This document shows positions 8,700 through 64,000 of a stretch of 64,000 bases of DNA, one piece after another. The stretch is from assembly GCF_002575655.3 (NCBI RefSeq), contig NC_053035.3:374209792-374273791 (forward strand), in the 5' to 3' direction. Each line of letters begins with the position of its first letter. The stretch's first letter is position 1. Origin of the DNA: Aegilops tauschii subsp. strangulata. Its lineage: Eukaryota > Streptophyta > Magnoliopsida > Poales > Poaceae. The notes under the pieces are model-generated. The model was not told the DNA's origin. It saw only the letters and a list, made by a program, of their open reading frames with translations, and did not search any database. The translations under genes and the position numbers were made by a program.

Positions 8700-8703
8700 G
8701 CTT

Positions 8704-22799: not shown

Positions 22800-24197
22800 G
22801 AATATCAAACGGAGTCCAAACGAAATGAAACCTTTGGGAACGTGATTTTCGGAACGAACGTGATCCAGAGGACTTGGACCCTACGTCAAGACATCAACCA
22901 GGAGGGCACGAGGTAGGGGGCGCGCCTACCCCCCCTGGGCGCGCCCTCCACCCTCGTGGGCCCACTGTTGCTCCACCGACGTACTCCTTCCTCCTATATA
23001 TACCTACGTACCCCCAAACTACCAGATACGAAGCCAAAAACCTAATTCCACCGCCGCAACCTTCTGTACCTGTGAGATCCCATCTTGGGGCCTGTTCCGG
23101 AGCTCCGCCGGAGGGGGCATCGATCACAGAGGGCTTCTACACCAACACCATAGCCTCTCCGATGATGTGTGAGTAGTTTACCTCAGACCTTCGGGTCCAT
23201 AGTTATTAGCTAGATGGCTTCTTCTCTCTTTTTGGATCTCAATACAATGTTCTCCGCCTCTCTTGTGGAGATCTATTCGATGTCATCTTCTTTTGTGGTG
23301 TGTTTGTTGAGACCGATGAATTGTGGGTTTATGATCAAGCTTATCTATGAACAATATTTGAATCTTCTCTGAATTCTTTTATGTATGATTGGTTATTTTT
23401 GCAAGCCTCTTTGAATTATCAGTTTGGTTTGGCCTACTAGATTGATCTTTCTTGCAATGGGAGAAGTGCTTAGCTTTGGGTTCAATCTTGCGGTGTCCTT
23501 TCCCAGTGACAGTAGGGGCAGCAAGGCACGTATAGTATTGTTGCCATCGAGGATAACAAGATGGGGTTTATATCATATTGCATGAGTTTATCCCTCTACA
23601 TCATGTCATCTTGCTTAAAGCGTTACTCTGTTCTTATGAACTTAATACTCTAGATGCATGCTGGATAGCGGTCGATGTGTGGACTAATAGTAGTAGATGC
23701 AGGCAGGATTCGGTCTACTTGTCTTGGACGTGATGCCTATATACATGATCATACCTAGATATTCTCATAACTATGCTCAATTCTGTCAATTGCTCAACAG
23801 TAATTCGTTCACCCATCGTAAATACTTATGCTCTTGAGAGAAGCCACTAGTGAAACCTATGGCCCCCGGGTCTATTTCCATCATATTAATCTTCCAACAC
23901 TTATTAATTTTTATTGCTTTCTATTTTACTTTGCATCTTTATCATAAAAATACCAAAAATATTATCTTATCATATCTATCAGATCTCACTCTCGTAAGTG
24001 ACCGTGTAGGGATTGACAACCCCTTATAGCGTTGGTTGCGAGGATTTACTTGTTTGTGTAGGTGCGAGGGACTCGTGCGTGGCCTCCTACTGGATTGATA
24101 CCTTGGTTCTCAAAAACTGAGGGAAATACTTACGCTACTTTGCTGCATCACCCTTTCCTCTTCAAGGGAAAACCAACGCAGTACTCAAGAGGTAGCA
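22800..24197 (+). repeat. 5'-truncated Gypsy LTR (WHAM/Sabrina-like), 1.4 kb
   Basis: The sequence from ATCAAACGGAGTCC through the CCTATATATACCTACG promoter region to the end GAGGTAGCA matches the 3' two-thirds of a very common Triticeae Gypsy LTR; family name uncertain. A TATA motif lies at about 22997-23003. The LTR start is missing at the junction with the Copia second ORF. Its far end (24197) abuts element C's LTR. No internal domain is attached and no gene is seen in it. Confidence 0.6.
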
Positions 24198-24496
24198 CCT
24201 GCGCTTGCTCCTTTAGCACCAAAGAGGAAACGGGTACTCTGCGCCCGCTGGCGCCAGCCTGACCTTGGTCGTCATGGCTCACGTCACGCGAACCTCGTGA
24301 GGTGCTCCTTGCCTTGATCTCTCCGCTCCTCGTGAGCCAGCCTAAGGAGGCTGCCCCTGAGGAGGTCTTGTGCCGTCCGCCTCGCGAGGCTTGGCCCCTC
24401 GCGAAGGTCTTGAGTGTTTGCTGGTGAAGATGGGACGTACCAGGCCACTGGAGGAGCCACGCCATGGGCCGCAGGCAGGCAAGTCTGGGGACCCCC
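24198..24496 (-). repeat. 3' LTR of element C, truncated at both ends
   Basis: On the minus strand it matches B's 3' LTR from about 55081 to 55375 (shared GGGGTCCCCAGACTTGCC, CCTCGCGAGGGGCCAAGCC and GTTTCCTCTTTGGTGCTAA segments). The first 18 bp of the LTR and about 320 bp of upstream interior are deleted, so the LTR is fused directly to the start of the B3 ORF. The other end is cut at the LTR ending at 24197. Confidence 0.75.
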
Positions 24497-25179
24497 ACCG
24501 TGGCCCCTCGCAGCCGCAGCAGCGCCTCTTCGTGCGGTGGGAGCCGCCCAGGTCGTGGCAGCCCCGTCGATGAAGGGAGGCGTGCCATGGTTGCGCGGCC
24601 TCCCTGGCCGCACTTGCACTCGGCGGAGGTGCTGCCGGAGTTTGTCGTGTGGTTGGAAAACCCGTGCGGCACCTGGCTTCAGCTCCCATGCTCCTTCACC
24701 GGCGAACTTCCGGCTGCGGGTCCAGGCGGTCTTTGGCTGCAGGTGGACGGCTGCTGCAGCAAGGCTTCGTGGGTCGCGGTGGAGGTCTCCGTCGCGGGCA
24801 ACGCAGCCCTGGCCCGTGGTTGGTAGACATTTGCCCGCACACGGGGCCTGGGCAGGCGGTGTACCTCCACTTCAAGTATGATGGCGACGCGACCCTCTAC
24901 GTGAGGGTATTCGGGGAAGATGGTCGCCACGGCGGATGCTGCCCTGAGGACAACGACGGCGGCGAGGTGCTCGGCCTTGGTGACGGCCGCGATGAGTGTG
25001 AAGGTGAACTCGCCCTCGGCGCCGGCCGCGGCTCGTCCAGCTACGGCAACTCCTCCTCCGGTGACAGCTCCAGTAGTGGCCGCTATGATCAGCCGCCACG
25101 TCGCCGTGCTCGCTTCAAGGACGGTGGTGGGTCGTCCCGCCGTCACGCCCCGGTGAAGCGCGAGAAGGACTCTGGATGA
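24497..25179 (+). pseudogene. Convergent B3-domain ORF of element C
   Basis: Homologue of the ORF at 54740-53957 in element B. The frame 24497-24826 has the VLPEFVVW start of the B3 region, LQLPCSF, GGLWLQ and ALARGW. A TAG at 24824-24826 replaces the CAG of B's GWQTFAR. A one-base loss near 24871 shifts the frame, and the last part resumes as LHFKYDGDATLYVRVFGEDG, then a Gly/Ser-rich tail, ending KREKDSG at 25177 with TGA. The AT-hook seen in B is deleted here. It lies antisense to C's gag-pol and ends toward the pol 3' end. The product would have been a DNA-binding protein; it is dead now. Confidence 0.75.
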
Positions 25180-31100: not shown

Positions 31101-31587
31101 TTCTAATGAAATTAAAATCACCCATGATAATCCAGTCCACATCACTAGGCATCTGAATATTACCAAACCATTCAATGAACTCAATCTTATCTTCATGATT
31201 GCAAGGCCCATAGATGTTTGTGAGGATCCAAGACTTGGAGGAAGTGTTGCAGGTGAACTGAATGGATAGAGAGAACTTGTTTTGGAACATCAACTCTCCA
31301 GTGAATAAAGCTCCATTCCAAGCAGTGAGGATGCCACCAGATGCCCCAATGGAAGGTAAGTATTCAAATTTATTAAATCTCGGTGGGCAAACTTTATGTA
31401 TATATGTTGAATCAAAGGTCTCTCTCTTTGTTTCCTGCAAACACACAATTCCAGCAGCACTTTCTTCCACTTTTTGTCTGATAGCCAGCCACTTATCTGA
31501 AGAGTTAATACCTCTCACATTCCAGTTTAGTATATTCCAGGTTCTGTTGTTATTCATTGAAAACCAGAAGTATGTGTCCTTGTACAC
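28182..31587 (-). pseudogene. LINE ORF2: endonuclease and reverse transcriptase
   Basis: N-terminal apurinic-type endonuclease: NWNVRGIN, LQETK, IYGPCNHEDK, IIMGDFNFI and SDHLP motifs, in order, from 31540 to about 30850. Then a linker with the FFHTKAS segment, the NLPTDKSPGPDGF motif, and RT with [35 protein letters not shown] and the catalytic YADD (near 29480). The C-terminal zf-RVT-like segment is CQQEETLHHLFWGCPFVQQC (about 28280-28215). The frame changes near 30110 and 29640, and there is a stop at 28638. It would nick target DNA and copy the LINE RNA in the nucleus; it is inactive now. Confidence 0.9.
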
Positions 31588-44123: not shown

Positions 44124-44142
44124 CCCCACGATGGGTGCCAAC
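44124..44142 (-). other. Element D primer-binding site
   Basis: On the minus strand, directly after the 5' LTR, the sequence reads TTGGCACCCATCGTGGGG. The position and the initial TGG fit a tRNA-primed site. I cannot assign the tRNA. Confidence 0.6.
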
Positions 44143-44680
44143 TGTCGTGGGATTGTCCCGGCAGATGTCTAGTGCAAGGACTTAGTCGTGGAGCCATCAC
44201 AACGAGATTAGCTTAAAGGGGTTAAAGCGGGACAAAGGACACAGGGAGTTTATACTGGTTCGGCCCCTTGCGGTGAAGGTAAAGGCCTAATCCAGTTGAG
44301 GTGGAATTACTTATGTCTCAATTACCAGGGAGCGAATACGCTTGACCTAACTTTCGATCTCTTCTTTCTTGCCCTTAACTCGTCGTCGGGTCGTCCCTTT
44401 ATATACTCAGGTTGATGCCCGGTGGCTTACAGAGTCCCGGCCGGCTCATAAACGTGTCCGGCCTGGTGACTTAACTACAATTGCCTTATCGTACAAGTTA
44501 TACACATATGGCGGTTTATACGTACGGGCCTTAAGACGCCTTTGGGCCTTGGGCCCTTCATAAGTTATCCTCATGAACCGCCATCTTCAATTCCTTCCTG
44601 GGCTTTGTCTCTATAAGTCGCCATGAAGATAACCCGGCCTCTCTTAGGCGGGTTAACTCAATAACTATATCCCCAACAGC
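44143..44680 (-). repeat. 5' LTR of element D
   Basis: Pairs with 25387-25923. Plus-strand reading TGTCGTGGGATTG to TCCCCAACA. The minus-strand TATA motif lies at about 44398-44405. Followed by the target-site copy GCATA and then element C. Confidence 0.88.
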
Positions 44681-47600
44681 ATAAGTGTTTTTCGTAGGCA
44701 TGTAGAGATAACTCAGCTTGGTGTATCTGAAGTAGTTTCCGCCTCGTGAGGCGTGCGTCTCCCAGCGCCTGGTGAGGCCTCCTTGCCGCGGGCTTGGGGG
44801 GCATCGAGGTACTGCAAAAATTTGTTAGGAAACCCTTATTCCTCCTTGCTCAGGGCCCCAGGAGTGGCCGGTCATGACCCAGCACTCCACATCGCGGTAC
44901 CCAAGGGGCACGGACTTAAGAGAGGGAGGTGCGCCAGTTTGCGAGCTCGAACAAGGGTGCCTCGCGAAGACCAGGAAAAACTCATGCGCGCACCTTTCCA
45001 GCCCCCTCGCGAGGCACGCGAGGGAGAGTACGGGCCAAAACAAAGAACCGAGGGAAGAAACAGAGGGAAAAGGCAATCGAACCAAGCCAACAAGAAACAC
45101 CAGAACGTGAATTTCCATTAAAGAGGGGCAAGCCAACCACGGAAAGCAAATGAACAGCCGCGTCTGGCACCTAGTCTAGTCTTCTCACCAGCGCGGAGCT
45201 AAGTGCCGCCACTAGGACGTGGGAGGGAGCCCCCGAGGCCCGAGCGCGGCACTCCGGAGACTTCGGGGCGTGTACAACCCCACTCATTATTACGTGAGAG
45301 TGTCACAAGCGGAGACCTTCACATGCACTGGGCCTTGCTTCACAGGCACTGGGCCTTGCTTCATGGGTAGAACTTTCGGAGGTGCTCGATGTTCCAGGCG
45401 TTCTGGATGGGGACCCCGTCCTGCATCTCCAGGCGCACGGCGCCAGGCCTGAAGACGTGGGCAACCCTAAACGGGCCCTCCCACATGGGCGAGAGCTTAT
45501 GCAGCCCTTCCCCAGAGAGCACCCACCTTAGGACGAGGTCGCCCTCTTTGAGCGTCCTGGAGCGGACGCTGCGGCAGTGATATACCGTCACAACGCCTGC
45601 TGGTAACTTGCCGCTTGGAGCATGGCTTCACGGCGGCGTTCCTCCCCCAGCACAAGGTCCATCCCCCGCATGGCGTCCTGCTGCGTCTCATCAAAAGCCA
45701 GGACCCGCGCGGAGCGATGCTTAACCTCGTGAGGGAGAACCACTTCTACTCCATAGACGAGGAAGAACGGGGTCTCGCCTGTTGGCTTGGTAGCGGTGGT
45801 GCGGATGGACCACAGCACGGACTGGAGCTCGTCGTGCCAGCCCCTGCCGCAGGCCTCGAGCTTCTTCTTAAAGGTCCTGGTCTTGAGGCCTCTCAGGACC
45901 TCCGCGTTGGCGTGTTCGGCCTGGCCATTGCTCCTGGGGTGTGCCACCGAAGCGTAGCATATTGGCTCACGAGGCCCTTGATGAACTTAACCGCGGACCC
46001 GGCCGGGATGGTGCGGATGGCCTCCACCTCCGCCCATTTGGTGAACTTGTTGATGGCGACATAGAGGTAGCGGTAGCCCCCAGGCGCTCGTGGGAACGGG
46101 CCCAGGATATCCAGCCCCCAGACCGCGAATGGCCACGAGAGCGGGATGGTCTGGGGGCCCTGAGCTGGCTGGTGGATCTGCTTGGCGTGGAATTGGCAGG
46201 CCTCGCATGACCTCACCAGCTCGGTTGCGTCGTTGATCTGCCTGGAGATGCATCGCAAGGAAACATCATTTGGCCGCTTTCTGTATAGCTCACCGTCCTG
46301 GATGCAGTATGCCGTAGCCTGCCGGGCCACGCGCTTCGCGTCCTCCTCTTTCTCCGACAGCGTCCCTCGCATCAGGTATTCCTTGAACTCCTCGGTCCAG
46401 CACCCCTCCCAAGGCTCAAGCGCCAGGAGCAAGCGTGCTCATGTGGTCGGGCCACAAGCGGGGGCTCCCGAGGCTGGTGGTTGAGGGAGTTCCTCCCGAG
46501 GCGGTGCCAGCCTCGCAGATGGGGGCGCTGCTGATGGCTTGAAAATCCGCTCCTCGAAGACGCCTGGTTCCTGGGGCAGACGCTTGGATGCCCTTCTGGC
46601 GATGTCGTCGGCTTCCTTGTTCGTGCCGCGAGGCACGTGCTGATGCTCCAATAACTGCTTCTCCATCTTGCGCACCTCCGTGAGGTACGCCTCCATGTGC
46701 TCGTCCTTCGGCTCGTACACCTTGTTGGAAAAGTTGACGAGGAGCTGCGAATCGCCCTTGGTGGTGAGACGTTTTACCCCCAAGGCCATGGTGGCCTTGA
46801 GACCGGCGATCAATCCCTCGTACTCCACGATGTTGCTGGAGACCTTCTCGCCCTGCTGGAAGCAGAGCTGCATAGCGTAGTAGAGCTTGTCTTGGGTGGG
46901 CGAGATAAGCACGGCTCCAGCCCCCGCGCCTTGGCGTGCGAAGGCGCCGTCAAAATACATGACCCAACCATCCGGCGCCTCGCTCCCCGGCGAGAGGGAG
47001 CGGCCCTCGCAAACCTCAGGCTCCGGGGCGTCGGTCCATTCGGCCTAGAAGTCGGCTAGGGCAGCCCCCTTGATGACTCTGGTTGTGCTGAACTCAAGCT
47101 GGAATGCTTGCAGCTTGATGTTCCATTCGGCAACTCTTCTAGCTGCGTTGGGGCTCCAGAGTACCCTCTCCAATGGGTAAGCCAAGACGACCTTGATTGG
47201 GTGACAATGGAAATAATGGCGCAGCTTGCGTGAGGCCACTAGGAGCGCGAGCAGGAGCTTCTGCGACATGGGGTACCGTGCCCTTGCATCCCGCAGTATC
47301 GTACTGACAAAGTACATCCAGTGCTCGACGAGGGCGGGAGCGCTGATGGAACCTGCGTCCGCCTGAGGTTGGGGCGCCTCCTGAGGTGATGAGTCCCCAG
47401 GAGCCTGGCCATTCATTAGGGCCTCTATAGGCCTGAGACCATCGTCTTGTTGAGCTTGATCATTTGTTGGCATTGTGGCGGATCCTGAGGCACCCTCTTG
47501 GCGCCGTACCGCCTCGGTTAGGGGGGCGGCGCGGCAGACTCTCGGCCTGGCACTCCTCCCGTACCGCCACCAACGTCGCGCTGGCGGAGTAGGGAGTGGC

Positions 47601-47953
47601 GGCAAGGTAAAGCACCAGGGGCTCGAGGGGACGAGGCACCACCATCACTAGAGGGCTAGTCAGGTATCTCTTGAGATCTTGAAACGCCAGGTCGGCCTCC
47701 AGGGTCCACTTGAACGGACCCTTCTTCTTCATCAGCTTGAAGAATGGCAGGGCGTGCTCCCCCAGCTTGGAGATGAAGCGACCTAGCCATGTCACACAGC
47801 CCGCAAGCTTCTGCATGTCCTTGAGGGTCTGCGGTGGACTCATGTCTTCTATTGCCTTGACTTTCTCCAGGTTAGCCTCGATCCCCCTATGGGACAGAGG
47901 AAGCCCAGCAGCTTGCCGGAGGGAACACCGAACACACACTTCTCTGGGTTGAG
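44681..47953 (-). mobile_element. Tat-clade Gypsy element C, pol part
   Basis: Continuation of 24198-25386 beyond element D. 44681-45360 is 3' untranslated sequence (no gene) colinear with B 53124-53790. 45361-47953 is the second half of pol. LTR, gag, protease and the first half of RT are missing: the element stops at 47953 and, after about 8 bases, B's truncated LTR begins. Confidence 0.82.
45361..47953 (-). pseudogene. Element C pol: RT end, RNase H domains, integrase
   Basis: RT end KVKAIEDMSPPQTLKDMQKL (47870 downward), connection/RNase H (RYPMSQKLLLALLVASRKLR), second RNase H (VMYFDGAFARQGAGAG, NIVEYEGLIAGLKATMALG, HVPRGTNKEADDIARR) and integrase (WPFAVWGLDILGPFP, ARSNGQAEHANAEVLRG, end HLRKFYP). 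Frame changes occur near 47900, 47480, 47040, 46435 and 45945. About 33 codons holding the second catalytic Asp (IITDNGSQF in B) are deleted near 45955, and the zinc region is also shortened. Inactive. Confidence 0.85.
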
Positions 47954-47961
47954 CTGTCCGG

Positions 47962-48462
47962 CCATGGAGCCCAAGACGGCGTCACCACGAGAGCCTTTTC
48001 CAGGCGAAGACCACTTTTGTCAGGATAAGCTATACTAGCTGTCCCCTTTCAAATTGGCCGTTGTTGGCTCCCTTCCCGCTCAATATTTGGGGAGAGGACC
48101 AGGGCCTATATAAGTAGAGCTAGCCACCACCGTAGGGAGTCTCTCGACCTCAAGTTCATTGAGAGGCATCTCACCCACACAAGTTCGTCAAGCACAAGAA
48201 CACCTCAACCTCAGGAGGCTGTTCTTCCCCTTGTACTGTTCATCATCAGCCCAAGAGGCAATCCACCACCACCACACTGGAGTAGGGTATTCACCACTAC
48301 GGTGGCCCGAACCAGTATAAATCTTGTGTCTTTGTCTTGCGAGTTCATCGAGTTCGTCTGCGAGATCTTAGAGAGCTAGGGCGTGGATCGGTAGGGAGGA
48401 AATCTTCGTGCGCACCCCAGTGTTTGAACCTTGAGGGTTTTGCCAGAACCAGTGATCCGACA
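47962..48462 (+). repeat. 5' LTR of element B, first 399 bp missing
   Basis: It begins CCATGGAGCCCAAGACGG, which is position 400 of the LTR as judged from the 3' copy (55462), and ends ATCCGACA. TATA motif TATATAAG at 48107-48114. The junction with element C lies within 47954-47961. Confidence 0.85.
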
Positions 48463-48480
48463 TTTGGCACACCAGGTAGG
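48463..48480 (+). other. Element B primer-binding site
   Basis: TTTGGCACACCAGGTAGG, a one-or-two-base variant of the TTTGGCGCGCCAGGTAGG site seen after many grass Gypsy LTRs. It fixes the LTR end at 48462. Confidence 0.7.
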
Positions 48481-48522
48481 GTGCGCCATAGCTCCTCTTC
48501 CGTCAATCTACGCTCCGCCCAC

Positions 48523-50550
48523 ATGGCGGGCGCCCTGTCACCGACTCCGACGACCGGCGTTGACGACGGGGCCAGGGGGCTCCGAGCCCTAGCCCCCGCC
48601 CTACGGCGGGTGCGGTGGCCACCCAAGTTCAAGCCGGAGATGCCGCCGCGCTACGACGGTGCGGCGGACCCGTCGGCTCTCCTGCTGGCGTACGAGGAGG
48701 CCGTCCTCGAGGCCGGGGGTGATGACAAGGTCATGGCCAACTGGCTTCCCATGGCCCTCGCCGGCGAGCCGCGCGCCTGGCTGCTCAACCTTCCTGGATC
48801 CACGGTGTCGTCTTGGGAGGAGCTGCGCGACCTCTTCACTGCGCGCTACGCGGCACCGGCGCACCACGCGGTCGCGGCCCTGCTAGGTGGCTCTCAGGCA
48901 TCGCCTTTAGATCGCCACATCAAGCCGTTCCTCCGCCAGATTGGTGCCGCTTCCAAGCGCTCGGGGGCTTCGCCCGGCTGGGCCGCGCCTGAGGCCGACC
49001 TCACCTTGAGCTCAGAAGACCACCCTGTCACCACCACCGGCTCCGGCATGCTTCCGATGCTCTACACGCCCACCATATGCAACGTGGCCGTCACCAAGAC
49101 CCTCATTGATGGCGGCGCTGGCCTCAACTTGCTCTCCGCGGAAGCCTTCAGCCTTCTTCATGTGCCGCTCGAGCGGCTCAGCCTCAGCAAGCCTTTCTCA
49201 GGAGTTGGTGGCGTCGCCGCCCGCTCCCTGGGGCAGATCCGCCTTCCCGTCACCTTCGGCACGTGCGACAACTATCGAACCGAGCTGGTCGACTTCGACA
49301 TCGCCCGCATCGGCCTCCCGTACAACGCCATCCTCGGGTACCCAGCTCTGGCCCAGTTCATGGCGGCGACTCATCCAACCTACAACCTCATGAAGATGCC
49401 TGGAAGCAAAGGTGTCCTCATCGTCAAGGGGGACACCAAGGAGGCCATGACGGCGCTCAAACTTGCCTTCAAGACCGCTGCAGTGGCGCAGCCCGCCGGC
49501 GCCGGTGCCCCCGAGGCCAAGGAGGCCACGCCAACCAAGAAGAAGCAGTTGTTCACCCAAGACAAGGCAGAAACCAAGCAGGTGCCGGTCAACGAGGACG
49601 GGTCCTCAGGAGCCACCTTCACCATAGGTGCCGGCCTCAACTCCAGCCAAGAGGAAGCATTGGTGAAGTTCTTGCGCGCGAACAAGGATATATTCGCATG
49701 GGAGCCCAATCAGCTGGTAGGGGTCCCAAGAGAGGTGATTCAGCACCACTTAAGGGTATGCCCCAATGTGCGCCATGTGAAGCAGCGAGCAAGGCGGCAG
49801 TCCACGGAGAAGCAGGCCTTCATCGTCCAAGAAACCCGCAAGTTGGAGGCGGCAGGTGCCATTCGTGGGGTCAGGTACCCCGAATGGCTGGCGAACCCCG
49901 TCGTGGTGCCGAAGAAAGGTGGAAACGAGCGAATGTGCGTCGACTTCACCAACCTCAACAAGGCGTGCCCTCAAGACCCGTTCCCTCTCCCACGCATCGA
50001 CCAGATCATCGACTCCACCGCCGAGTGCGACCTGCTGTGCTTCCTGGATGCGTTCTCAGGGTGTCACCAAATCAAGATGGTCGTGGAAGATGTAGAGAAG
50101 ACAACCTTCCTGACCCCGCGTGGGGTGTACTGCTACACCTGCATGCCCTTCAGACTGCGCAACGCGGGTGCGACCTTTCAGCGGCTGATGCACATCGCCT
50201 TAGCGCGGCAGCTCGGGAGAAACATGGAGGCCTACGTCGACGACATTGTGGTGAAGTCTCGGGAGGCGAGAACCTTGATCCAAGACCTGGAGGAGACCTT
50301 CGAGAGCCTGCGCCAGGTGAACTTGCGGCTTAACCCGGAAAAATGTGTGTTCGGTGTCCCTTCCGGCAAGCTGCTTGGATTCCTTGTGTCCCACAGAGGG
50401 ATCGAGGTGAACCCGGAGAAGATCAAGGCCATTGAGGACATGAGCCCACCGCAGACCCTCAAGGAAATGCAGAAGCTGGCTGGTCGGGTGACCGTGCTGG
50501 GGCGCTTCATTTCCAAGCTGGGAGAGCGCGCTTACCCTTCTTCAAGCTAA
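48523..50550 (+). pseudogene. Element B gag (internally deleted)-protease-RT in one frame
   Basis: One 675-codon frame from ATG 48523; a further 62 upstream codons are open but lie in the LTR and leader. A short gag capsid part (VRWPPKFKPEMPPRYDGAADP, WLPMALAGEPRAWLLNLPG) ends abruptly around 48880-49020 and runs straight into the protease, without the usual Gag C-terminus or zinc knuckle. Protease: KTLIDGGAGLNLLS (49093-49134), ILGYPALAQFMA. RT: EWLANPVVVPKK, MCVDFTNLNKACPQDPFPLP, CMPFRLRNAGATFQ (Arg for the usual Gly), YVDD (50233-50244). A frameshift near 50530 ends the frame. Confidence 0.82.
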
Positions 50551-51875
50551 TGAAGAAGAAGGGCCCATTCGAGTGGACCCCGGAGGCTGACCAAGCCTTC
50601 CAAGACCTCAAGAGATACCTGACCAGCCCTCCGGTGATGGTGGCACCACGGCCTCTCGAGCCATTAGTACTTTATCTTGCCGCCACCCCATACTCCGCCA
50701 ACGCTGCACTAGTGGCGGTCCGAGAGGAGCATCGAGCCAAGAGCGCGCCGCACCGAGCTACGCCGCCAGCCGAGATGACGCAAGGTCAGGAAGGCGCAGC
50801 AAGAGCCGAAGCGGCAACAACAGAAGACCAAGCTCGGCAGGACAACGCCGTAGAGATTCCCGTGAGCGATCAGGCGCCAGGGGTCCTACCACCTCAGGAG
50901 GCACCCCAACCATCGCAAGACGCGAGCCTCACCAACACGCCAGCCCTCGTCAAATACCCGGTGTATTTTGTCAGCACAGTGTTGCGGGATGCGAGGGCGC
51001 GATATCCCATGCCTCAGAAGCTCCTGCTCGCGCTCCTGGCGGCCTCGCGCAAGTTGCGGCACTACTTCTAGGGCCACCCCATCAAAGTCGTCTCGGCCTA
51101 CCCATTGGAGAGGGTGCTCAGGAGCCCCAACTCTGCCAGAAGGGTCGTCGAGTGGAACATCGAGCTGCATGCGTTCCAGTTGGAGTTCAGCACCACCAGG
51201 GTCATCAAGGGAGCCGCGCTCGCTGATTTCGTGGCAGAATGGACAGATGCCCCGACGCTGGAAGTAGGCGAGGACCGGTCCACCTCCACAGGAAGTGAGG
51301 CGCCCGACGGATGGGTCATGTATTTTGATGGTGCCTTCGCGCACCAGGGCGCGGGGGCTGGAGCAGTGCTCATCTCGCCCACGCAGGACAAGCTCTACTA
51401 CGTTGTGCAGGTCTGCTTTCAGCAGGGCGAGAAGGTCTCCAACAACATCGCAGAATACGAAGGCCTCATAGCTGGCCTGAAGGCCGCGGCAGCTCTAGGG
51501 GTGAAGCGCCTCACCGTTAGGGGCGGCTCACAGCTCCTCGTCAACTTCTCCAACAAAGTGTACGAGCCAAAGGACGAGCAAATGGAGGCGTACCTGGCAG
51601 AAGTACGTAAGATGGAAAAGCAGTTCCTAGGCCTGGAGGTGCAGCATGTGCCCCGTGGTACCAACAAGGAAGCCGACGACATCGCCAGGAGGGCGTCCAA
51701 GCGGCAACCCCAAGAGCCCGGCGTCTTCGAGGAGCGGCTCTTCAAGCCGTCAGCAACGCCACCACTTTCAAACACAGCTCAGCCTCGGGAGGAGCTCCCA
51801 CAGCCGCCTGCCACAGGAGCCCCAGCTTGTGGCCTGACCTCAAGAGCTCGCCTGCTCTTGGCACTCGAGCCCTAG
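50550..51875 (+). pseudogene. Element B RNase H and second RNase H
   Basis: The frame resumes at MKKKGPFEWTPEADQAFQDL. The first RNase H (LVLYLAATPYSANAALV, RYPMPQKLLLALLAASRKLR) ends in a TAG at 51069-51071, where GHPIKVVSAYPLERVL follows in frame. The second RNase H has VMYFDGAFAHQGAGAGAV, NIAEYEGLIAGLKAAAALGV and HVPRGTNKEADDIARRASK. A TAG at 51873-51875 replaces the TGG (Trp) that element C keeps in its LALEPWEGCW. Confidence 0.82.
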
Positions 51876-53123
51876 GAGGGGTGCTGGACCAAGGAATTCA
51901 AGGAATATCTGATGCAAGGGGCACTGCCTGAGAAGGAGGAGGACGCAAAGCGCGTGGCCCGGCAAGCCACGGCGTACTGCATCCAGGACGGTGAGTTGTA
52001 CAGGAAGCGGCCAAATGATGTTTCTCTGCGCTGCATTTCCACGGACCAGGGGAAGGAGTTGCTAATTAACATACATGGCGGGGATTGTGGGCACCACTCG
52101 TCATCACGGCCCCTCGTCGGCAAGGTATTCCGAAGTGGGTTCTACTGGCCCACTGCGCTCAATGACGCAGCTGAGCTGGTGAAGTCCTGCGAAGCCTGCC
52201 AGTTCCACGCCAAGCAGATCCATCAGCTGGCTCAGGGCCTCCAGTCCATCCCACTCACATGGCCATTCGCGGTCTGGGGGCTGGACATCTTGGGCCCGTT
52301 CCCTCGAGCGCCTGGGGGCTACCGCTACCTCTACGTCGCCATCGACAAGTTCACCAAGTGGGCGGAGGTGGAATCCATCCGCACCATCCCAGTCGGTTCC
52401 GCGGTCAAGTTCATCAAGGGCCTCGTGAGCCGTTTCGGGGTCCCCAACCGCATCATCACCGACAACGGCTCGCAGTTCACCAGTAACCTCTTCAAAACAT
52501 ACCGCGCTAACCTTGGAACGCAGATCTGCTACGCTTCGGTGGTGCACCCCAGGAGCAATGGCCAGGCTGAACGCGCCAATGCAGAGGTCCTGAGGGGCCT
52601 CCAGACCAGGACCTTCAAGAAGAAGCTCGAGGCCTGCGGCAGGGGCTGGCACGACGAGCTCCAGTCCGTGATGTGGTCCATCCGCACCACCGTCACCAAG
52701 CCCACGGGCGAGACCCCATTCTTCCTTGTCTACGGAGCCGAAGCGGTCCTCCCTCACGAGGTCAAGCATCACTCCGCACGGGTCCTGGCGTTCGATGAAA
52801 CGCAGCAGGACGCCACGCGGGGGATGGACCTCGTATTGGGGAAGGAGCGTCGCCGTGAAGCTGCACTGAGGGCGGCAAGCTACCAGCAGGCGTTGCGGCA
52901 ATACCACTACCGCAACATCCGCTCCAGGATGCTCGAGCCGGGCGACCTCGTCCTGAGGCGGGTCCTCTCTAGGGAAGGGTTGCACAAGCCCTCACCCATG
53001 TGGGAGGGCCCCTTCAGGGTTGTCCATGTCTCCAGTCCTGGCGCCGCGCGCCTGGAGACGCAGGACGGGGTACCCATCCAGAACGGCTGGAACATCCAGC
53101 ACCTCCGGAAGTTCTACCCATGA
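51876..53123 (+). CDS. Element B integrase
   Basis: Uninterrupted from just after the TAG to TGA at 53121. Zinc-binding part: HGGDCGHHSSSR ... CEACQF. Core with all three catalytic residues: WGLDILGPFPRAPGG (Asp), RIITDNGSQFTSNLF (Asp), RSNGQAERANAEVL (Glu). The C-terminal part has ETPFFLVYGAEAVLPHEV, GDLVLRR and GPFRVVH, ending NIQHLRKFYP. It would insert element cDNA into the chromosome. It is the best-preserved pol domain in the window, but lacks an intact upstream frame to be made from. Confidence 0.82.
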   Translation, partial: EGCWTKEFKEYLMQGALPEKEEDAKRVARQATAYCIQDGELYRKRPNDVSLRCISTDQGKELLINIHGGDCGHHSSSRPLVGKVFRSGFYWPTALNDAAELVKSCEACQFHAKQIHQLAQGLQSIPLTWPFAVWGLDILGPFPRAPGGYRYLYVAIDKFTKWAEVESIRTIPVGSAVKFIKGLVSRFGVPNRIITDNGSQFTSNLFKTYRANLGTQICYASVVHPRSNGQAERANAEVLRGLQTRTFKKKLEACGRGWHDELQSVMWSIRTTVTKPTGETPFFLVYGAEAVLPHEVKHHSARVLAFDETQQDATRGMDLVLGKERRREAALRAASYQQALRQYHYRNIRSRMLEPGDLVLRRVLSREGLHKPSPMWEGPFRVVHVSSPGAARLETQDGVPIQNGWNIQHLRKFYP

Positions 53124-53956
53124 AGCAAGGCCCAGTGCCTGTGAAGAAAGGCCCAGTGCCTATGAAGAATCGCCGCCCGTGAAATTCTCACGTAATAATG
53201 AGTGGGGCTGTACATGCCCCGGAGTCTCAGGAGTGCCGCCCTCAGGCTTCGGGGGCTCCCTCCCACGCCTAGTGGCAGAACTTAGCTCCGCGCTGGTGAG
53301 AAGACTTGAAGACTAGACTAGGTGCCGGACGCGGCTTTTCATTTGCTTTCCGTAGTTGGCTCGCCTTCTCTTAATCGAAATTTGCTTTTGGTGTTCCTTG
53401 CTGGTTTGGTTCCGTCGCCCTTGTCGCCTTTCCTGACTCTAGTTCGCTTATGTTCTCTCTCTCGCATACCTCGTGAGGGGGCTAGGCAGGTGCCCCCGCG
53501 AGGGTTTCTTCCTCTTCTCTCTGCCTTCGGTCTGCTTTCTCGCAAGGCACCCTCGTTTGGGCCCACAAGCCAGCACATCTCTCCTAATCCGTGCCCCTCG
53601 GGTACCGCGATATGAAGCGCTGGGTCAAGGCTCGGGTGAACGATAAGTCTCCTAGCGAGCCTCCTAACGAATTTTTTCCAGTTCCTGAGCGACCACTAGG
53701 CCAAGACGGGCACGAGGAAACAAGTGCCTCATGAAGAAGAGGCTGCCCCGAACGCACCAGGCTAAGTTATCTCCACACAAAGTAACAACACAGCACGGAA
53801 ATAACAAGCATAGCATAATGGTTGAGGAACCACAGTTCGATACATGCCCCTTCGGGCCCATACTAGTTTCATTTTGATGCAAGAAAGAAAAGAGGAACAA
53901 GACCAAAGCGGCGTTGCAGCAATCCACGGGGGCAGGTCTCTAGCAAAGTCCCGAGC
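53124..53956 (+). other. Element B spacer between pol and the convergent B3 ORF
   Basis: No gene. It starts with a short direct repeat (AAGGCCCAGTGCCT twice, 53129-53160), contains CCTCGTGAGG/CCCGCGAGGG-type palindromes near 53466-53505, and is colinear with element C 45360-44681 plus 25386-25180. Confidence 0.65.
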
Positions 53957-54740
53957 TTAGCCGGACCACTCCTCTTGCTTCACAGAGGCATGGCGACGAG
54001 ACGACCCGCTACCACCTTCGAAGTGGGCGCGGCGGTTGGTCGTAGCCGCCGCTGCTGGAGCTTTCGCCAAGCGAAGAGCCACCGTAGCTGGACGAGGTGT
54101 AGCCGGCGGGCTCGCCCTTGCCCACGTCGCGGCCATCGCCAAGACCGAGCACCTCCTCGCCGTCGTTCGTCTCAGGGCAGCACCCGGCGCGGCGACCATC
54201 TTCCCCAAACACCCTCACGTAGAGGGTCGCATCACCGTCATACTTGAAATGGAGGGTGCACCGCCTACTCAGGCCGCGCGCGCGGGCGAACGTCTGCCAA
54301 CCGCGGGCCAGAGCTACATTGCCCGCGGCAGAGAACTCAACCGCGACCCAGGAGGCCCTGCTGCAGCAGTCGTCCGCCTGCAGCCAGAGCCCGCCTGGAC
54401 CAGAGGCCGGCAGCTCGTCGATGAAGAAGCGCGGAAGCTGAAGCCAGTTGCCGGCCGGATCCTCCGACCAGACAACGAACTCCGGCAGCACCTCTGCCGA
54501 GTGGAAGCGTGGCCGGGGAGGCCGTGCAACCACGGCACGTCTCACCTCATCGACGGGGCTGCCGCAACCGGAGTGACCCCCGCCACGCGCAGCGGCGCCA
54601 CCCAGGGAGCGGGGGGCCACGGCGGGAGTCGTGGTGTGCTTACGGGGACGACCGCGTCCCCGCTTGGGCGCCGGGGAGCCGGACCCCTCGCGGGGGGCCT
54701 TTCCCATCTCCGCAGCGGAGAACCTCTTCAACGGCGCCAT
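53957..54740 (-). pseudogene. Convergent AT-hook plus B3-domain ORF of element B
   Basis: ATG at 54740. Residues about 26-34 read KRGRGRPRK, an AT-hook. Residues about 90-195 form a plant B3 DNA-binding domain of REM type: VLPEFVVW, WLQLPRFFIDELP, GGLWLQADD, ASWVAVEF, LARGWQTFARARGL, LHFKYDGDATLYVRVF, ending near GCCPE. A Gly/Ser-rich tail follows. A frameshift near 54030 diverts the end; the other frame gives the tail SSRRHASVKQEEWSG ending at 53957, matching element C's KREKDSG end. The product would bind DNA in the nucleus. It may derive from a host B3 gene. No intron is visible. Confidence 0.78.
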
Positions 54741-54819
54741 TGGAGTCGGTGGTGGAGCAGAGGAGGAAGAAGCAGGCAGAATGGGAAGAAGTGGGGGACG
54801 GGGGCTCCACCCCCTCCCT

Positions 54820-54827
54820 CATTTATA
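54820..54827 (-). promoter_or_regulatory. TATA motif upstream of element B's B3 ORF
   Basis: TATAAATG on the minus strand, 80 bp before the ATG at 54740, on the strand opposite to the element's gag-pol. The distance leaves room for a short leader. 54828-55062 holds no other gene and ends in the polypurine tract CCCGGGGGCTAC (55051-55062). Confidence 0.5.
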
Positions 54828-55062
54828 GCAGAAGAAGGCCAACCAGCGCCCCCCACGATCACAGGTAATGATAGTTTTCCTTGCATGTCACAGGGACTTG
54901 TCAAGTCGAGCGGTTGCCGAGGCAACGTGGGGAAGCGGAGACGCCCACGTCTAATCAACCGCCACGCGTCGACGAAAGCTTTTGGGGCCCGCGGCGCGCC
55001 GCACTTGACCTTTGGCTTCGCCTCGAAGCCAAGCCCGAGCGCGCCTTAGGCCCGGGGGCTAC

Positions 55063-55772
55063 TGTCGGCGTTCTGGGAACGGGGGTCCCCAGACTTGCCT
55101 GCCTGCGGCCCACGGCGTGGCTGAGCTGCAGGCCTGTACGGCCCATCTTCATCAGCGAGACATTCAGGACCCTCGCGAGGGGCCAAGCCTCGCGGGGCAG
55201 ACGACGAAAGACCTCCTCAGGAGCGGCCTCACTAGGCTGCCTCGCGAGGAGCGGAGAAATCAAGGCAGGGCAAACCTCACGACCCTCTCGTGACGTGAGC
55301 CATGACGATCAAGATCAGGCGGGCGCCAGCACGCGCCGCGTCCTTGTTTCCTCTTTGGTGCTAAGGAGGCAAGCGCAGGCGCGGAGTACCAAGGCATCAA
55401 GCAAAGGTTTCCATATCAGTGCAACAAGACCAAGACCAGCAGGACGGCAGGACGAAGGTCACCATGGAGCCCAAGACGGCGTCACCACCAGAGCCTTTTG
55501 CAGGCGAAGACCACTTTTGTCAGGATAAGCTGTACTAGCTGTCCCCTTTCAAATTGGTCGTTGTTGGCTCCCTTCTCGCTCAATATTTGGGGAGAGGACC
55601 AGGGCCTATATAAGTAGAGCTAGCCACCACCGTAGGGAGGCTCTCGACCTCAAGTTCAATTAGAGGCATCTCACCCACACAAGTTCGTCAAGCACAAGAA
55701 CACCTCAACCTCAGGAGGCTGTTCTTCCCCTTGTACTGTTCATCATCAGCCCAAGAGGCAATCCACCACCAC
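55063..55772 (+). repeat. 3' LTR of element B, interrupted by element E
   Basis: It starts TGTCGGCGTTCTGG directly after the polypurine tract. The second part (55462-55772) pairs with 47962-48272. TATA motif near 55607-55614. It is cut at 55772 by TGTCGGGTGG of element E. Confidence 0.87.
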
Positions 55773-57002
55773 TGTCGGGTGGTAGGTGCGACATATGCCA
55801 ACGGGTGGCTTATCATGGTGGGTGCAAATAAGACGTCGCCGGTGCCTGGAAACGGGATGAGGCGAAGACATGCACGCCGGCGAATCTTACCCAGGTTCGG
55901 GGCTCTCCATGGAGATAACACCCCTAGTCCTGCTCTGCGGGGTCTCCGCATGATCACTAGATCAGAACGAGTAGCTACAATTGCTCCTAGAGATGTTGGG
56001 TTCAAGGGAGAAGAAGAGCAAGGCTAGCTCTCACTTCCCTCTCTCTATGGTGTGTGTGTAACTCTAAGAACCCAACCCTTTGCATGGGTGCCCCGGGGGG
56101 TTTATATAGGCCTACCCCCCGGGGGTACAATTGTAATCCGGCTGGGCGCGGGTCCCAGTCGTCAGTGTCTGCGCTCGCCGGCTTCTCCGCCGGCCGTTGG
56201 GGCCCTCCGACTGGTGGGTCCCGCTGGCTGCCGGCCTCTTGGTCGACAGGCTGGCCCCACCGCCTAGGGGTCTTGTCGGCGGCTGCTTACTGTAGCCTCA
56301 ACCCTGATGACGAGGGCTTCGTCGAGGTAAGCGTGGCTACAGTGTGCCGCCTCGAGGGATCTCACTGTAGCCTTACCTCGTCTTGTCTCCTTAATGTGGC
56401 ACATGCTTCGAGGAAGGGGGTAGCCGGCTTCTGGGGGCCGGCTACGCCCTTGGCCGACTGGGGGAGGCCGGGCCGCCTTCGCGCCTCTCTCTGGCTAAAG
56501 GGGCCCGCCGCCCGTAGGCCATACTGGTGTCTGTCGTGGGTGACGTTGAGGCCAGCATGGCTACAGTGCCGAGCCGGACGGGAGACGGCCGTCCCGTACA
56601 GCGTCCTGTGGCCATGCCTGCCTCGGGCTTCGGGGGTAGTGGGCCACACTGTGGCCACACCCGTCTTGTCACCGTTATGTGGGTGTAGTTTTGGTGGGTG
56701 CGGTCTTGGCCGGCTTCTTGGAGTCGGCGCTCTTCGCGGCCGACTCTGGGGAGTCGGCGTTCTTCATGGCCGGCTCTGGGGAGTCGGCATCCTCTATGGC
56801 TGGCTTCCTGGAGTCGGCCATCCCGTGGTTATCTTGGGGGGAGGTTGCTGAGGCTGGGTCGCCTTCTGAGAGTCGGCTTCAGAGGTAGCCGGCCGGGGAA
56901 GGCGGCCCAATGCTTGAAATGCTTGAAGGCCCAAATGGCCTGATAATTTTTTGAAGAGCCAGGGGCAGTCGGTTAGGCTACCCGTGGCTATTTACTCCGA
57001 CA
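55773..57002 (-). repeat. 3' LTR of element E (1230 bp)
   Basis: Plus-strand reading TGTCGGGTGGTAGG to TTTACTCCGACA. Minus-strand TATA motif TATATAAA at 56101-56108. GC-rich, with a 30-bp tandem repeat (56708-56827). The open frames across it (for example 56054-56851) are compositional and have no domain. Confidence 0.85.
56708..56827 (+). repeat. 30-bp tandem repeat, four copies, in element E's LTR
   Basis: Units start at 56708, 56738, 56768 and 56798, each GGCYGRCTYY-type followed by GGAGTCGGC. A plus-strand frame turns them into a ten-residue repeat (AGSGESAxxM), but there is no sign that this is a gene. The units lie upstream of the LTR promoter on the element's sense strand. Confidence 0.85.
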
Positions 57003-57460: not shown

Positions 57461-59883
57461 GGGGGAGGGGGGAGAGCGGCAGGCTCTCGCACGCTCCTCC
57501 TCTTTCCACCATCTTCTTCCTCCTGTGCTTTCTTGCAACAGCGCCTCGCCGCCGCGCTCTTCCACCACTCGCTCCTCCGCCGCCGCGCTCGTTCTCGCCA
57601 GCCCCATGCCGCGATGCAGTACGGCGGGGATTGGGACGGCTCCAACGTCCACGAGGATCACGTCAAATTCCTCCGCAAGACGCGGCGGCTGCCCGGTGCG
57701 GACAAGGTGGAGGTCCGTCTCGCGCCGGCGAAGGAGATTACGCCGGAGCCGCGGGAAGGCGAGCGGGTAGTCTTCCGCTCGCATTTCTTGCGCGGCATCG
57801 GCCTGCCCGTGAGCGCTTTCTTCCGCTCTTGGCTCGAGTTCTACCAGCTCCAGCCGCACCACCTCCCCCCGAACACGGTAGTGCTGCTGTCCGCCTTCGT
57901 CACCTTGTGCGAAGGCTACCTCAGCGTCCTCCCTACCCTCAAGCTCTGGGGGGAGTTCTTCCAGTCCAAGCTGGGCACGCGCATGCAAGGCGTGCCGGCT
58001 CAGAGTGGCGCCTTCATCGCGATGCGGAGGGTGGCCGCCGACAACCCCTTCCCCGTCATCATGCTGATCCAGTCGGTGAAGTTATGGCAAAAGTCGTACT
58101 TCTACGTGAGGAACGTCGCCCCGCAGGGCGACTACGTCAATCTGCCGGCTTACGTAGCCGGCCCACCAGCGGGCAGGCGGCCCCAGTGGTCCTACCGGGC
58201 CGTGACGCTGACGCCGGCTGGAAACGCAGCCGTCGCCCGAGTGCGAGCGATGATCCAGTCGGAGGGCTTGTCGGGGCCTGACCTGCTGGCCGCCTTCGTC
58301 ACGCGCCGGGTACTCCCGCTCCAGAGCCGCCCTCATCTGATCTGTCAGATGAGCGGCCAGCTCGATCCGAGCCGGATGTGTACAAAGGACATGCCGCACG
58401 ACGAGGTGGCATATATGGTGAACTACCTTGAGAACTGCAAACTCTCCGCAGAGTGGCAGTTCGGCAAGGAGCCATATTGCCGAGCCAATCCGCCGCCTAC
58501 GGTATGTTCTCCTTGTCTCTTCTTCTTCTCTCAGTTTTGTCGCCGAGTTCCTTTTGGCCGACTCTGACTAGTCGGCTTGTTTTCGTCAGAGCCCTCTTCT
58601 TCGGCCTGCAGGCGGGTCGGACGCGGAGCGCCGATTCGCCCCGGACCGGACGGAGCATGATCTGGAGGACCCCGACTTGGGGGCGGCTGCTATGGACGAC
58701 AACACTGAGCCGGGTGGTGGCCAAGCCGGCGGTGAAGCAGGCGGCTCCGGGCTTGGAGTCAGCTTCGACGACTGGCCGGACGATGACGAGGCCGAAGTCG
58801 TCCCGCGCCGTCAGCCGGCGTCTGGCCGCGGCGCGGGTTCCTCCGCTGCGCCGCCTGCTCGGGGCGGCGGGCAAAAGCGTCGTGCCGCGCAGGGTTTGTT
58901 CGGCAGTCGGTCGAAGAAGCCCCGAGGCGGGGCAGCGGCGACTAGGCAGGAGGAGGCGGCCGCGAAGGCGGCTCGCTTCCGCAAGACGGTGAAGCAACCG
59001 CAAACGGTGTCGGTGTAAGTTCAAACTCTTTCGTGTACTCTTTTTTCTTTTCTCTGGTGGCTCCTGAATCCTTGTCTTTTTCTCCAAACAATCAGAGCTC
59101 CATTGTCGCTCGAGAGGGCGGCTGCCGCCTCCGTCGTTGAGTCGTCGAGGGGATCTAGGAGCACCACTCACTGCGTGGACCCCCATGCCAACCTTCAGGC
59201 GGCGACGGAACGGAACGCGCGGGAGGAGCGGGAGGCGGAGGCACGGAAGGAGGCGGCCGCCCAGGCGGCGCAGGAGGAGGAGGCGGCGAAGGCGCGCGCC
59301 GACGCCGCAGCCAAGGCCCAAGCGGAGGCTGCAGCTGCGGCGATGGCGGAGGGGGCCTTGTTGGTCACCCCACTGCGCGTCGCAGCGCCTGGGGCCCCGG
59401 AGCCTCCGGCAGAAGAAGCCGGCGGTGACCAGCCGGGGCTGGAGAGGGATGACGACGTCGTCATTCTGGAGAGGGCGCCGGTGCCGACCCCGCCGACTGG
59501 GGCTGCTCAAGGCGGCCGGCCTGATCTTCCGCCTGCGTAGTCGGCGGGGGGCGAGCCGGCCGCGAGGATTGAGCTGGCGGTCCGGCTGCCGCCGAGCCGG
59601 CGCGCGGGGAAGGTTGCGTCAGAGCCACAGAAGGCTGCGTCGGAGCCGCAGCCGGCCGCGGGCTCCAGCTCGTCGGCCCAGGATGTGGAGGTGGCCAGCG
59701 CTACCTCGGGGTGGACGCCGGGCGGAGGGGCGGCCGTGATGAACGTGGCCGCGCAGGATGTCCGGACCCGGCTCCAGGCCCAGGCTACGGCGCTGAGGCA
59801 ATACACCGACGAATTCCTTGCAACGCGGGCGGCCATCCGGGTTAGTCTTCTTATCTTGCTTCTTCTTGATCTTAGTTTCTTCC

Positions 59884-62110: not shown

Positions 62111-64000
62111 TCAACTGTAAAATCTTCTCAGGAGGTTCACGTTCCATGGTCGCTCTGACTCCTTGCCGGACTCATCTCTCTTGCGTGCTCTTGGTTTTTG
62201 CGCGTCGATCAAGTAGTAGGAGTCGTTGCCTAGTGCCTTGCTGATGACGAAGGGGCCTTCCCAAGGGGCCGAGAGCTTGTGCTGGCCGGCTGTTCGCTGG
62301 ATCAGCCGAAGCACAAGGTCGCCCTCTTGGAAGGATCTTGGCTTGACCTTGCGGTTGTGGTAGCGGCGCAGCCCTTACTGGTAGATGGCGGACCGGCTGA
62401 GTGCTAACAGCCGGCCTTCTTCTAGTAGATCGACGCTGTCTTCTCTTGCTTCCTTGGCCTCCGCCTCCGTGTACATGGTGACCCGAGGCGAGTCGAACTC
62501 GATGTCGGTTGGGATGACAGCCTCGGCATCATATACAAGGAAGAACGGAGTGAAGCCGGTTGACTTGTTGGGGGTAGTGCGCAGACTCCAGAGGACAGCC
62601 GGCAGCTCATCGAGCCAGCAGCCGGCCGATCGCTCCAGTGGTACAACCAGTCGGGGCTTGATGCCGGAGAGGATGAGTCCATTTGCTCGCTTGACCTGGC
62701 CGTTTGACTGCGGGTGGGCAACGGACGCTAAGTCCAGTCGGATGCCCTGCGTCGCACAGAAACGTGCCAGTGCTCCTTTGGCAAAGTTTGTGCCGTTGTC
62801 GGTGATGATGTTGTGCGGTACGCCGTACCGAGTAGTGATGTCGGTGATGAATGTTACGGCATTCGGCCCGTTCAGCTTCTTGATCGGCTTCGCTTCGATC
62901 CACTTGGTGAACTTGTCCACGGCGACAAGCAGATGTGTCAAGCCGCCGCGGGTTGTCTTGAAAGGGCCCACCATGTCCAGTCCCCAGACGGCAAAGGGCC
63001 AGGTGAGGGGAATGGTCTTGAGTGCAGAAGCCGGCAGGTGTTGCTTGGAACTAAAGACTTGGCATCCTCTGCAGCTCTTGACTATCTCTTTGGCATCTTC
63101 CAAGGCAGTCGGCCAAAAGAAACCATGGCGGAAAGCCTTGGCCACAAGTGATCTTGAGGCTGCGTGGTGGCCGCATTCGCCTTGGTGGATATCCTTGAGG
63201 ATTGCCACTCCTTTTTCTGGCTCGACACAACGCTGGAAGACTCCAGTGACGCTGCGCTTCACAAGTTCTCTGTTGATTATTGCATATGCTCCGGCTCGTC
63301 GTTGCACTAGTCTTGCTGAGATCTCATCAGCCGGCAGCTCTCTGCTGACTAGGAACTTGAGGATGGGCTGGGCCCATGATGGAGCTGTGACTTCTTCTTC
63401 TGTTAGCGTAGCCACCATGACTCGGGTGGGTGGGTTGGGTGGCGTGGAGTTGGAGTCGGCCACCGCTTCTTGTGTCGTTGCAGTCCCCGGGCCGACTGCT
63501 GCAGTCCCCGGGCCGGGTTCTGAAGTCCCCGGGCCGGGTGCGACTACGGCAGTTCCCAGGCCAGTTGTCGAAGTCCCCGTGCCGCCTGCGGGGTTCCTCC
63601 AGTCGGATCCGGCTGCATCTGGCACAGGCAGTACGAAGATAGAGTCCGACTCTGGAGACGGCTTGATGGACGGCTTGAGGAGGCGCTGGAGGGAGACGCC
63701 AGTCGGTATGGCTTGTTGGGTGGAGCCGATCCGTGCTAGGGCATCTGCTTGGTCGTTGTCGGCCCTTGGCACGTGAAGGAACTCGCACCCTTCGAAGTAC
63801 CCGCTGATCTGCTGGACGAGGAATCGATAGCTCGCCATGTTCGCGTCCTTGGCGTCCCAGTCGCCAGACGACTGCTGGACCACCAAGTCTGAGTCGCCGT
63901 AACACAGGATCCGGCGTATGCCGAGCTCTTTGGCTAGCCGGAGCCCGTGTACGAGCGCCTCGTACTCGGCCACGTTGTTGGAGGCGGCGAAGTGGATCTG
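62111..64000 (-). pseudogene. Element E second RNase H and integrase
   Basis: Second RNase H: NNVAEYEALVHGLRLAKELG at the window edge, YGDSDLVVQQSSGDWDAKD, HVPRADNDQADALARIGS. A Pro/Gly/Thr linker with GPGT repeats (63477-63580) follows. Integrase: IHQGECGHHAASR ... CRGCQ zinc part; catalytic Asp in WGLDMVGPF and in IITDNGTNF; but the third site reads SNGQVKRAN, with Lys for the catalytic Glu. A TAA at about 62375 (after SAIYQ) precedes the end, which continues GPFVISK to LLRRFYS at 62114. Gag, protease and RT lie outside the window. Confidence 0.87.
63477..63580 (-). repeat. Tandem repeat of about 24 bp coding a GPGT linker
   Basis: About four or five imperfect units with the core CAGTCCCCGGGCCG (plus-strand reading), in frame with the protein between the second RNase H and integrase. 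They translate on the minus strand as GPGT-type repeats. The core resembles the AGTCCCCGAG motifs elsewhere in element E. Confidence 0.75.

What the first reader, a model, noticed from the sequence alone, without database searches (positions are those of the whole stretch)
53957..54740. A retrotransposon family with an antisense AT-hook + B3 DNA-binding gene
Seen: two copies (B 54740-53957 minus, C 24497-25179 plus), both antisense to their element's gag-pol and in the same slot between pol and the 3' LTR. They share an REM-like B3 domain (LPRFFIDELP, GWQTFAR, FKYDGDATLYVRVF); B also keeps an AT-hook (KRGRGRPRK). Known: extra ORFs of unknown function occur at this position in Tat elements, and B3 domains are plant-specific DNA-binding modules. 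Inference: the family captured a host B3 gene and may use it for targeting, for control of its own LTR, or for interfering with silencing.
Basis: partly seen in the sequence, partly recalled or inferred. Interest (0 to 1): 0.8.

Follow-up and report, generated by a model that had tools for sequence, protein, structure and literature searches.

The report
Jumping gene carrying captured DNA-binding gene
A very abundant retrotransposon family in a wild-wheat-like genome carries, on its opposite strand, an extra gene that it appears to have taken from its plant host; the gene makes a predicted DNA-binding protein that selection seems to have kept, and it may help the element control its own expression.

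The parts
54009..54740 (-). Antisense accessory gene of element B, 243 aa, AT-hook + B3 protein (P0001)
   Evidence: Open ATG ORF; B3 and AT-hook motif; 150 scored genome matches, itself included
54633..54665 (-). AT-hook (residues 26-36)
   Evidence: Pfam AT_hook E 0.026, below cut-off; mean pairwise identity 80% against 41% in the following linker
54192..54488 (-). B3 DNA-binding domain (residues 85-183)
54820..54827 (-). TATA box of the presumed own promoter, 87 nt before the ATG
   Evidence: the 8-base pattern occurs 7 times in the window; TATA[AT][AG] 83-95 nt before the aligned start in 30 of 30 protein-chosen copies and found in 25 of 30 DNA-chosen copies
53957..54008 (-). Out-of-frame remainder of the family's C-terminus in copy B
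   Evidence: Sequence against relatives
48337..53123 (+). gag-pol of element B: gag (weak match), protease (weak match), RT, RNase H, archaeal-type RNase H, integrase; broken by a frameshift and stops
   Evidence: Pfam, ORF list
47962..48272 (+). Part of the truncated 5' LTR of element B; 97.4% identical (8 mismatches in 311) to 55462-55772
55064..55772 (+). 3' LTR of element B, interrupted at 55773 by the next element
24497..25179 (+). Copy C of the accessory gene, pseudogene without start, AT-hook or promoter
24195..24496 (-). LTR stub of element C fused directly to the accessory gene
   Evidence: 83.9% identical to 55081-55382
44875..47954 (-). pol remains of element C (RNase H, archaeal-type RNase H, integrase)

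Best explanation
A large Ty3/gypsy family of the Tat clade carries an accessory gene, antisense to gag-pol and between integrase and the 3' LTR. The gene has a conserved TATA box of its own and encodes a small protein with an AT-hook, a REM-type B3 domain and a Ser/Gly-rich tail. The B3 part probably descends from one capture of a host REM-like gene. Shown by computation: the slot, the architecture, the predicted B3 fold, copies on all seven large contigs, intact copies, and a pattern of constraint on hook, B3 and tail but not on the linker. Inferred: the protein is made from its own promoter, enters the nucleus, grips DNA with hook (minor groove) and B3, and acts on the element's own DNA as a regulator of LTR transcription or chromatin. 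An antisense promoter of its own would let it be made when the LTR is silent.
Against: No expression, binding or localisation data. B's own B3 and AT-hook scores lie below Pfam's cut-offs; Pfam AT_hook matches 2 of 50 relatives at E<=0.05. Synonymous sites evolve faster than the spacer (median dS 0.207, dN 0.068, spacer K 0.113 in the protein-chosen set), so plain dN/dS overstates constraint. In the DNA-chosen set the whole-gene ratio is 0.60, B3 alone 0.65, and 0-fold diversity (0.065) equals that of the spacer (0.066), although the spacer was the search key and so is biased low. Shared-change counts are small, not independent, and leaving out the linker was decided after seeing the regions. 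Only 9 of 30 DNA-chosen loci are intact by my test, and 10 of these 30 are also among the 30 protein-chosen loci. The TE branch is very long (3.02) and only 18 host exons were in the tree.
Confidence: 0.6

Rival explanations
1. The protein steers integration: hook and B3 tether the pre-integration complex to chosen chromatin or to AT-rich DNA.
For: DNA-binding architecture; found beside integrase in 26 of the 30 best loci. Works like chromodomain or tethering modules of other elements (recalled).
Against: It is a separate antisense gene, not fused to integrase, and would have to be made on its own and find the complex. No insertion-site analysis was run.
Confidence: 0.15
2. Anti-silencing factor in the manner of VANC: the protein binds motifs in the element's own non-coding DNA and removes repressive marks. 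(A special case of the best explanation.)
For: Same logic as VANC, a TE-encoded sequence-specific DNA binder (PMC5735166, passages). Two predicted DNA-binding modules with signs of selection on both.
Against: No motif array was sought beyond a tandem-repeat scan, which shows only a short repeat at the integrase end and one inside the gene. No methylation data.
Confidence: 0.25
3. The antisense transcript matters, not the protein: it makes double-stranded RNA that restrains the element, and the ORF is a by-product.
For: Antisense transcripts with such a role are discussed for LTR elements (PMC7264820). A TATA box is conserved.
Against: Constraint follows the reading frame: B-C substitutions by codon position 27/26/71, p 1e-7; hook and B3 look kept while the linker drifts.
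Confidence: 0.07
4. A passive passenger: a captured gene that hitchhikes in a successful family without function.
For: Captured genes in LTR elements are known (PMC7264820). Whole-gene ratio 0.60, 0-fold diversity equal to the spacer's, and 21 of 30 DNA-chosen loci not intact, as expected for dead copies.
Against: Shared changes are fewer at amino-acid sites: p 0.024 over the whole gene, 0.0014 outside the linker (rough); relatives at 48-60% identity keep B3, and those with an N-terminus mostly keep the hook.
Confidence: 0.05

Closest known systems
B3 domain in Aegilops tauschii LTR-retrotransposon consensuses (PMC9289625, section 12 read)
   Same: B3 in at least five consensuses, all such domains being in Gypsy elements; at their filter only in Ae. 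tauschii among 121 angiosperm genomes. Probably the same family (inference).
   Different: One sentence. It gives no strand, slot, AT-hook, promoter, selection test or fold.
Retand antisense ORFs with Transposase_28 (PF04195; PMC11963269 abstract, results and discussion)
   Same: Antisense, between pol and 3' LTR, predicted DNA-binding protein, regulatory role proposed.
   Different: A different protein: the one comparison made gives only E 0.021, outside the TRP28 domain. B3 is not among the domains named in the parts read. Pol-LTR distance is about 1.94 kb here, 2.9-6.6 kb there.
Maize Grande gene23 (as described in PMC7264820)
   Same: Antisense accessory gene with own promoter and a nuclear protein.
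   Different: No clear similarity to other proteins reported for such ORFs there; here the protein is AT-hook + B3. Nuclear location is not tested here.
VANC anti-silencing proteins of VANDAL transposons (PMC5735166 passages)
   Same: TE-encoded sequence-specific DNA-binding protein; a model for how this one may work.
   Different: Different protein and class of element (recalled); anti-silencing not tested here.
Host REM-family B3 genes, e.g. At1g16640 and VRN1 (family label recalled)
   Same: Closest fold and sequence.
   Different: Host genes; the TE proteins add an AT-hook and form their own long-branched clade.

Membership tests
B3 domain superfamily | Sequence match to B3 profile | tested here: met
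   40 of 50 relatives at E<=0.05, best 3.8e-6; B alone, 22.2 bits, is below the 30.1 cut-off
B3 domain superfamily | B3 barrel fold | tested here: met
B3 domain superfamily | DNA binding | not testable with these tools
   Needs EMSA or DAP-seq
REM type of B3 | Closest relatives are REM proteins | tested here: met
AT-hook proteins | GRP core flanked by basic residues | tested here: met
   KRGxx(R/H)P(R/H)(K/E) in 22 of 141 fetched proteins, many of which lack the N-terminus; 21 of 22 that reach residue 26; GRP core in 25 of 30 genome copies. Pfam score below cut-off and only 2 of 50 matched
Ty3/gypsy Tat clade | Second, archaeal-type RNase H; in angiosperm Tat elements between RNase H and integrase | tested here: met
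   RVT_3 at 51105-51875 between RT_RNaseH and rve; criterion from PMC6317226 passages
Retand subclade | RT-RH-INT phylogeny, PBS type | not tested
   No reference set was at hand
Retand subclade (as surveyed in PMC11963269) | Antisense TRP28 ORF and pol-3'LTR region of 2.9-6.6 kb | tested here: not met
   No TRP28 in the three pol-LTR ORFs of B that were scanned; distance about 1.94 kb. So it is filed as Tat, not Retand
VANC-like anti-silencing factors | Loss of methylation at own copies | not testable with these tools
   Needs methylation data

The most novel reading that the evidence does not exclude
A retrotransposon captured a host REM gene, added an AT-hook, and turned it into its own sequence-specific transcription or anti-silencing factor, made from an antisense promoter that works independently of the LTR: a retrotransposon counterpart of VANC, and one reason for the family's success.
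Probability: 0.3. Interest if true: 0.85.

Novelty: new variant of a known kind. Interest (0 to 1): 0.62.

Why it matters
What the antisense accessory genes of plant Tat elements do is an open question (PMC7264820, PMC11963269). This one has a recognisable, host-derived DNA-binding domain, so its binding sites could be measured directly. It also matters for annotation: two family members are named as host genes in nr ('B3 domain-containing protein Os03g0212300-like', Ae. tauschii), so B3 gene counts and expression studies in wheat relatives may include TE copies.

Tried and rejected
Relatives in viral contigs: none by single protein or profile. BFVD fold search: no match at E<=0.001. Homology between the B3 protein and the TRP28 protein of the neighbouring element: one 71-residue alignment, E 0.021, outside the TRP28 domain; treated as chance. 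The + strand ORF 54036-55049 was rejected as a shadow frame: no Pfam match. The + strand frames give 1.48, 1.07 and 0.34; the last mirrors the gene's codon phase and holds 8 stops. Bacterial promoter scan: irrelevant. A regular expression ('GWQxF core 0 of 141') was mistyped, and the gap count in the last line is uninformative; neither is used. The ratios (all 0.60, hook 0.60, linker 0.94, B3 0.55, tail 0.47) are distorted by frameshifted copies, so I use the nucleotide-level version. In one search the overall B-C ratio is 0.44 (not 0.20) with a laxer alignment and site classes; B3 alone is 0.26, and 0.22 outside CG/CHG sites. Rows dropped: 3 of the 29 non-B loci (under 600 aligned bases); one of 12 TE domains and two of 20 host exons before the tree. 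The second subfamily (P0024) could not be searched in the genome.

That the finding is little described rests on searches of open-licence PMC papers only. Four listed papers that hold 'B3 domain' were checked by passages and do not describe it; most listed papers were seen as listings only. The supplements of PMC9289625 were not readable. Passages of PMC11728184 and PMC10171312 were seen and not used.

Full report
WHAT IS THERE. Copy B is an open reading frame of 243 codons at 54740..54009 on the minus strand. It lies between the integrase end of a plus-strand gag-pol (48337-53123) and a 3' LTR that begins at 55064. The pol contains a second, archaeal-type RNase H between RNase H and integrase, the mark of the Tat clade (criterion in PMC6317226 passages). 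Element B is itself broken: its 5' LTR is truncated, pol has a frameshift and stops, and its 3' LTR is interrupted at 55773 by another element. The LTR parts still comparable are 97.4% identical over 311 bases. Copy C at 24497-25179 sits in the same slot and antisense to its own pol (44875-47954, minus strand), from which it is separated by a nested block flanked by 541-base repeats (25383-25923 and 44139-44678). C is a deletion derivative: start codon, AT-hook, promoter and the first LTR bases are gone, and the frame is broken.

HOW COMMON. The protein database holds 183 relatives of B at E<=0.001 and 371 by profile, the best 120 listed each time. Two of the 120 listed are nr records named 'B3 domain-containing protein Os03g0212300-like [Aegilops tauschii]'. 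The window's own genome (seven large contigs of 497-654 Mb, 4.10 Gb in all; size and number suggest Ae. tauschii, an inference) gave 17,353 first-look candidates, which is not a copy count. The best 150 were scored; all 150 match over almost the whole protein (the shortest spans are 1-221 and 18-241) at 80% identity or more, and 99 of 150 have no stop inside (my hand count). Of the 30 best loci, 28 have the LTR directly upstream (one more has an LTR match on the far side, one none), 30 the promoter stretch, 29 the spacer, 26 the integrase tail, and 25 both LTR and integrase tail in place. All 30 have a TATA box 83-95 bases before the aligned start of the gene.

SELECTION. B against C gives dN/dS 0.20 (0.13-0.31), while pol pieces of the same two elements give 0.17, 0.09 and 0.17. 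With a MAFFT alignment the gene's frame gives 0.26 and the other two frames of its strand 1.04 and 1.66; on the opposite strand 1.48, 1.07 and, for the mirror frame, 0.34 with 8 stops. By region: linker 0.43 (0.19-0.91), B3 0.13 (0.06-0.25), tail 0.18. Among the 30 protein-chosen copies the ratio of means is 0.30, with 0 of 435 pairs at 1 or more. That set was chosen by protein likeness, and synonymous sites there evolve faster than the spacer (median dS 0.207, dN 0.068, spacer K 0.113), so I made two checks. First, leaving out CG and CHG sites the 0-fold/4-fold ratio is 0.33 over the gene, 0.19 in the hook, 0.27 in B3, 0.35 in the tail and 0.72 in the linker. Second, I took 30 loci chosen only by likeness to B's non-coding spacer (40 were scored); 10 of them are the same copies as in the first set. 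In these, 25 of 30 keep at least 230 aligned codons, 9 of 30 (B included) are intact by my test, and a TATA box was found in 25 of 30. In 26 of the 29 non-B loci that align over 600 bases or more, plus B, the whole-gene ratio is 0.60 and B3 alone 0.65, which is weak, and 0-fold diversity equals the spacer's (0.065 and 0.066; the spacer was the search key). It splits as expected for dead copies of a selected gene: singletons 0.80; changes shared by three or more copies 0.40 (hook 0 of 21 against 3 of 8 sites; B3 6/194 against 6/57; tail 6/110 against 8/34; linker 14/92 against 4/39). Fisher tests of singletons against shared changes give p 0.024 for the whole gene, 0.016 for hook plus B3 and 0.0014 for all but the linker. 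Shared changes are not independent events, the counts are small and the linker was set apart after the fact, so these p-values are rough.

ORIGIN. In a tree of 11 TE domains and 18 B3 exons from the same genome the TE proteins form one clade (100/100) within a group of nine REM-like host exons (93/92), on a branch of 3.02 changes per column. The host exons are 18 of 20 fetched, out of 150 scored B3 matches. A TE profile scores the REM-like exons highest (best L009, E 2e-10 in a set of 20). This fits one old or fast capture; long-branch error is not excluded.

MECHANISM. Shown: a protein-coding gene with two predicted DNA-binding modules in a repeated antisense slot behind a conserved TATA box, with signs of selection. 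Inferred: it is made from its own promoter, enters the nucleus and binds DNA. I think it most likely regulates the element's own LTR or chromatin, because the slot and own promoter resemble maize Grande gene23, whose product is nuclear (as described in PMC7264820, parts 1-2 of 3 read), and because a clear precedent for a TE-encoded DNA binder of known role is VANC (PMC5735166 passages). Integration targeting is possible but less economical for a separate antisense gene.

AGAINST THE LITERATURE. PMC9289625 (section 12 read) reports in one sentence that B3 was detected in Ae. tauschii LTR-retrotransposon consensuses and, at their filter, in no other of 121 genomes. PMC11963269 (abstract, results and discussion read) lists TRP28, Smc and other domains in Retand antisense ORFs, not B3. 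PMC6317226 (passages) used a 250-codon minimum, which copy B's ORF falls short of, though relatives of 257-259 aa do not. I found no description of the AT-hook, the promoter, the selection or the REM origin in searches. Hence: a new variant of a known kind, with its existence partly in print.

Noticed in passing
57533-58567 (+), LTR about 55773-57002, pol 62375-63973 (-): The neighbouring Tat-like element carries the usual Transposase_28 (PF04195, E 1.7e-20) antisense ORF, so one window shows two different proteins in the same slot.
   Followed up: partly
nr records P0136 and P0141; PMC10326901 Table 3: Two family members are named as host B3 genes in Ae. tauschii. A wheat drought hub gene, TraesCS4D02G251500, bears nearly the same BLAST name (one passage seen); whether it is a TE copy was not tested.
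   Followed up: no
4606-8701 and 12544-16681: Two 4.1-kb direct repeats, 97.8% identical, beside a copia-type gag at 16710-18701; perhaps unusually long LTRs or a duplication.
   Followed up: no
28638-31587 (-): RT and endonuclease ORFs that look like a non-LTR element, inside the nested block between C's accessory gene and its pol.
   Followed up: no
53120-53169 and 45317-45363: A 21-base tandem repeat at the integrase end is present in both elements B and C.
   Followed up: no
L031 (G000:C1:374277863-374278525): A 95% identical accessory-gene copy 13 kb beyond B, matching residues 1-221 and lying in an open frame of 1093 aa, without spacer or integrase tail in its flank.
   Followed up: no
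34 of 141 fetched proteins: Many database relatives begin at an internal start just before B3 (MVARPP-like), so hook-less forms may exist or may be gene-calling effects.
   Followed up: no
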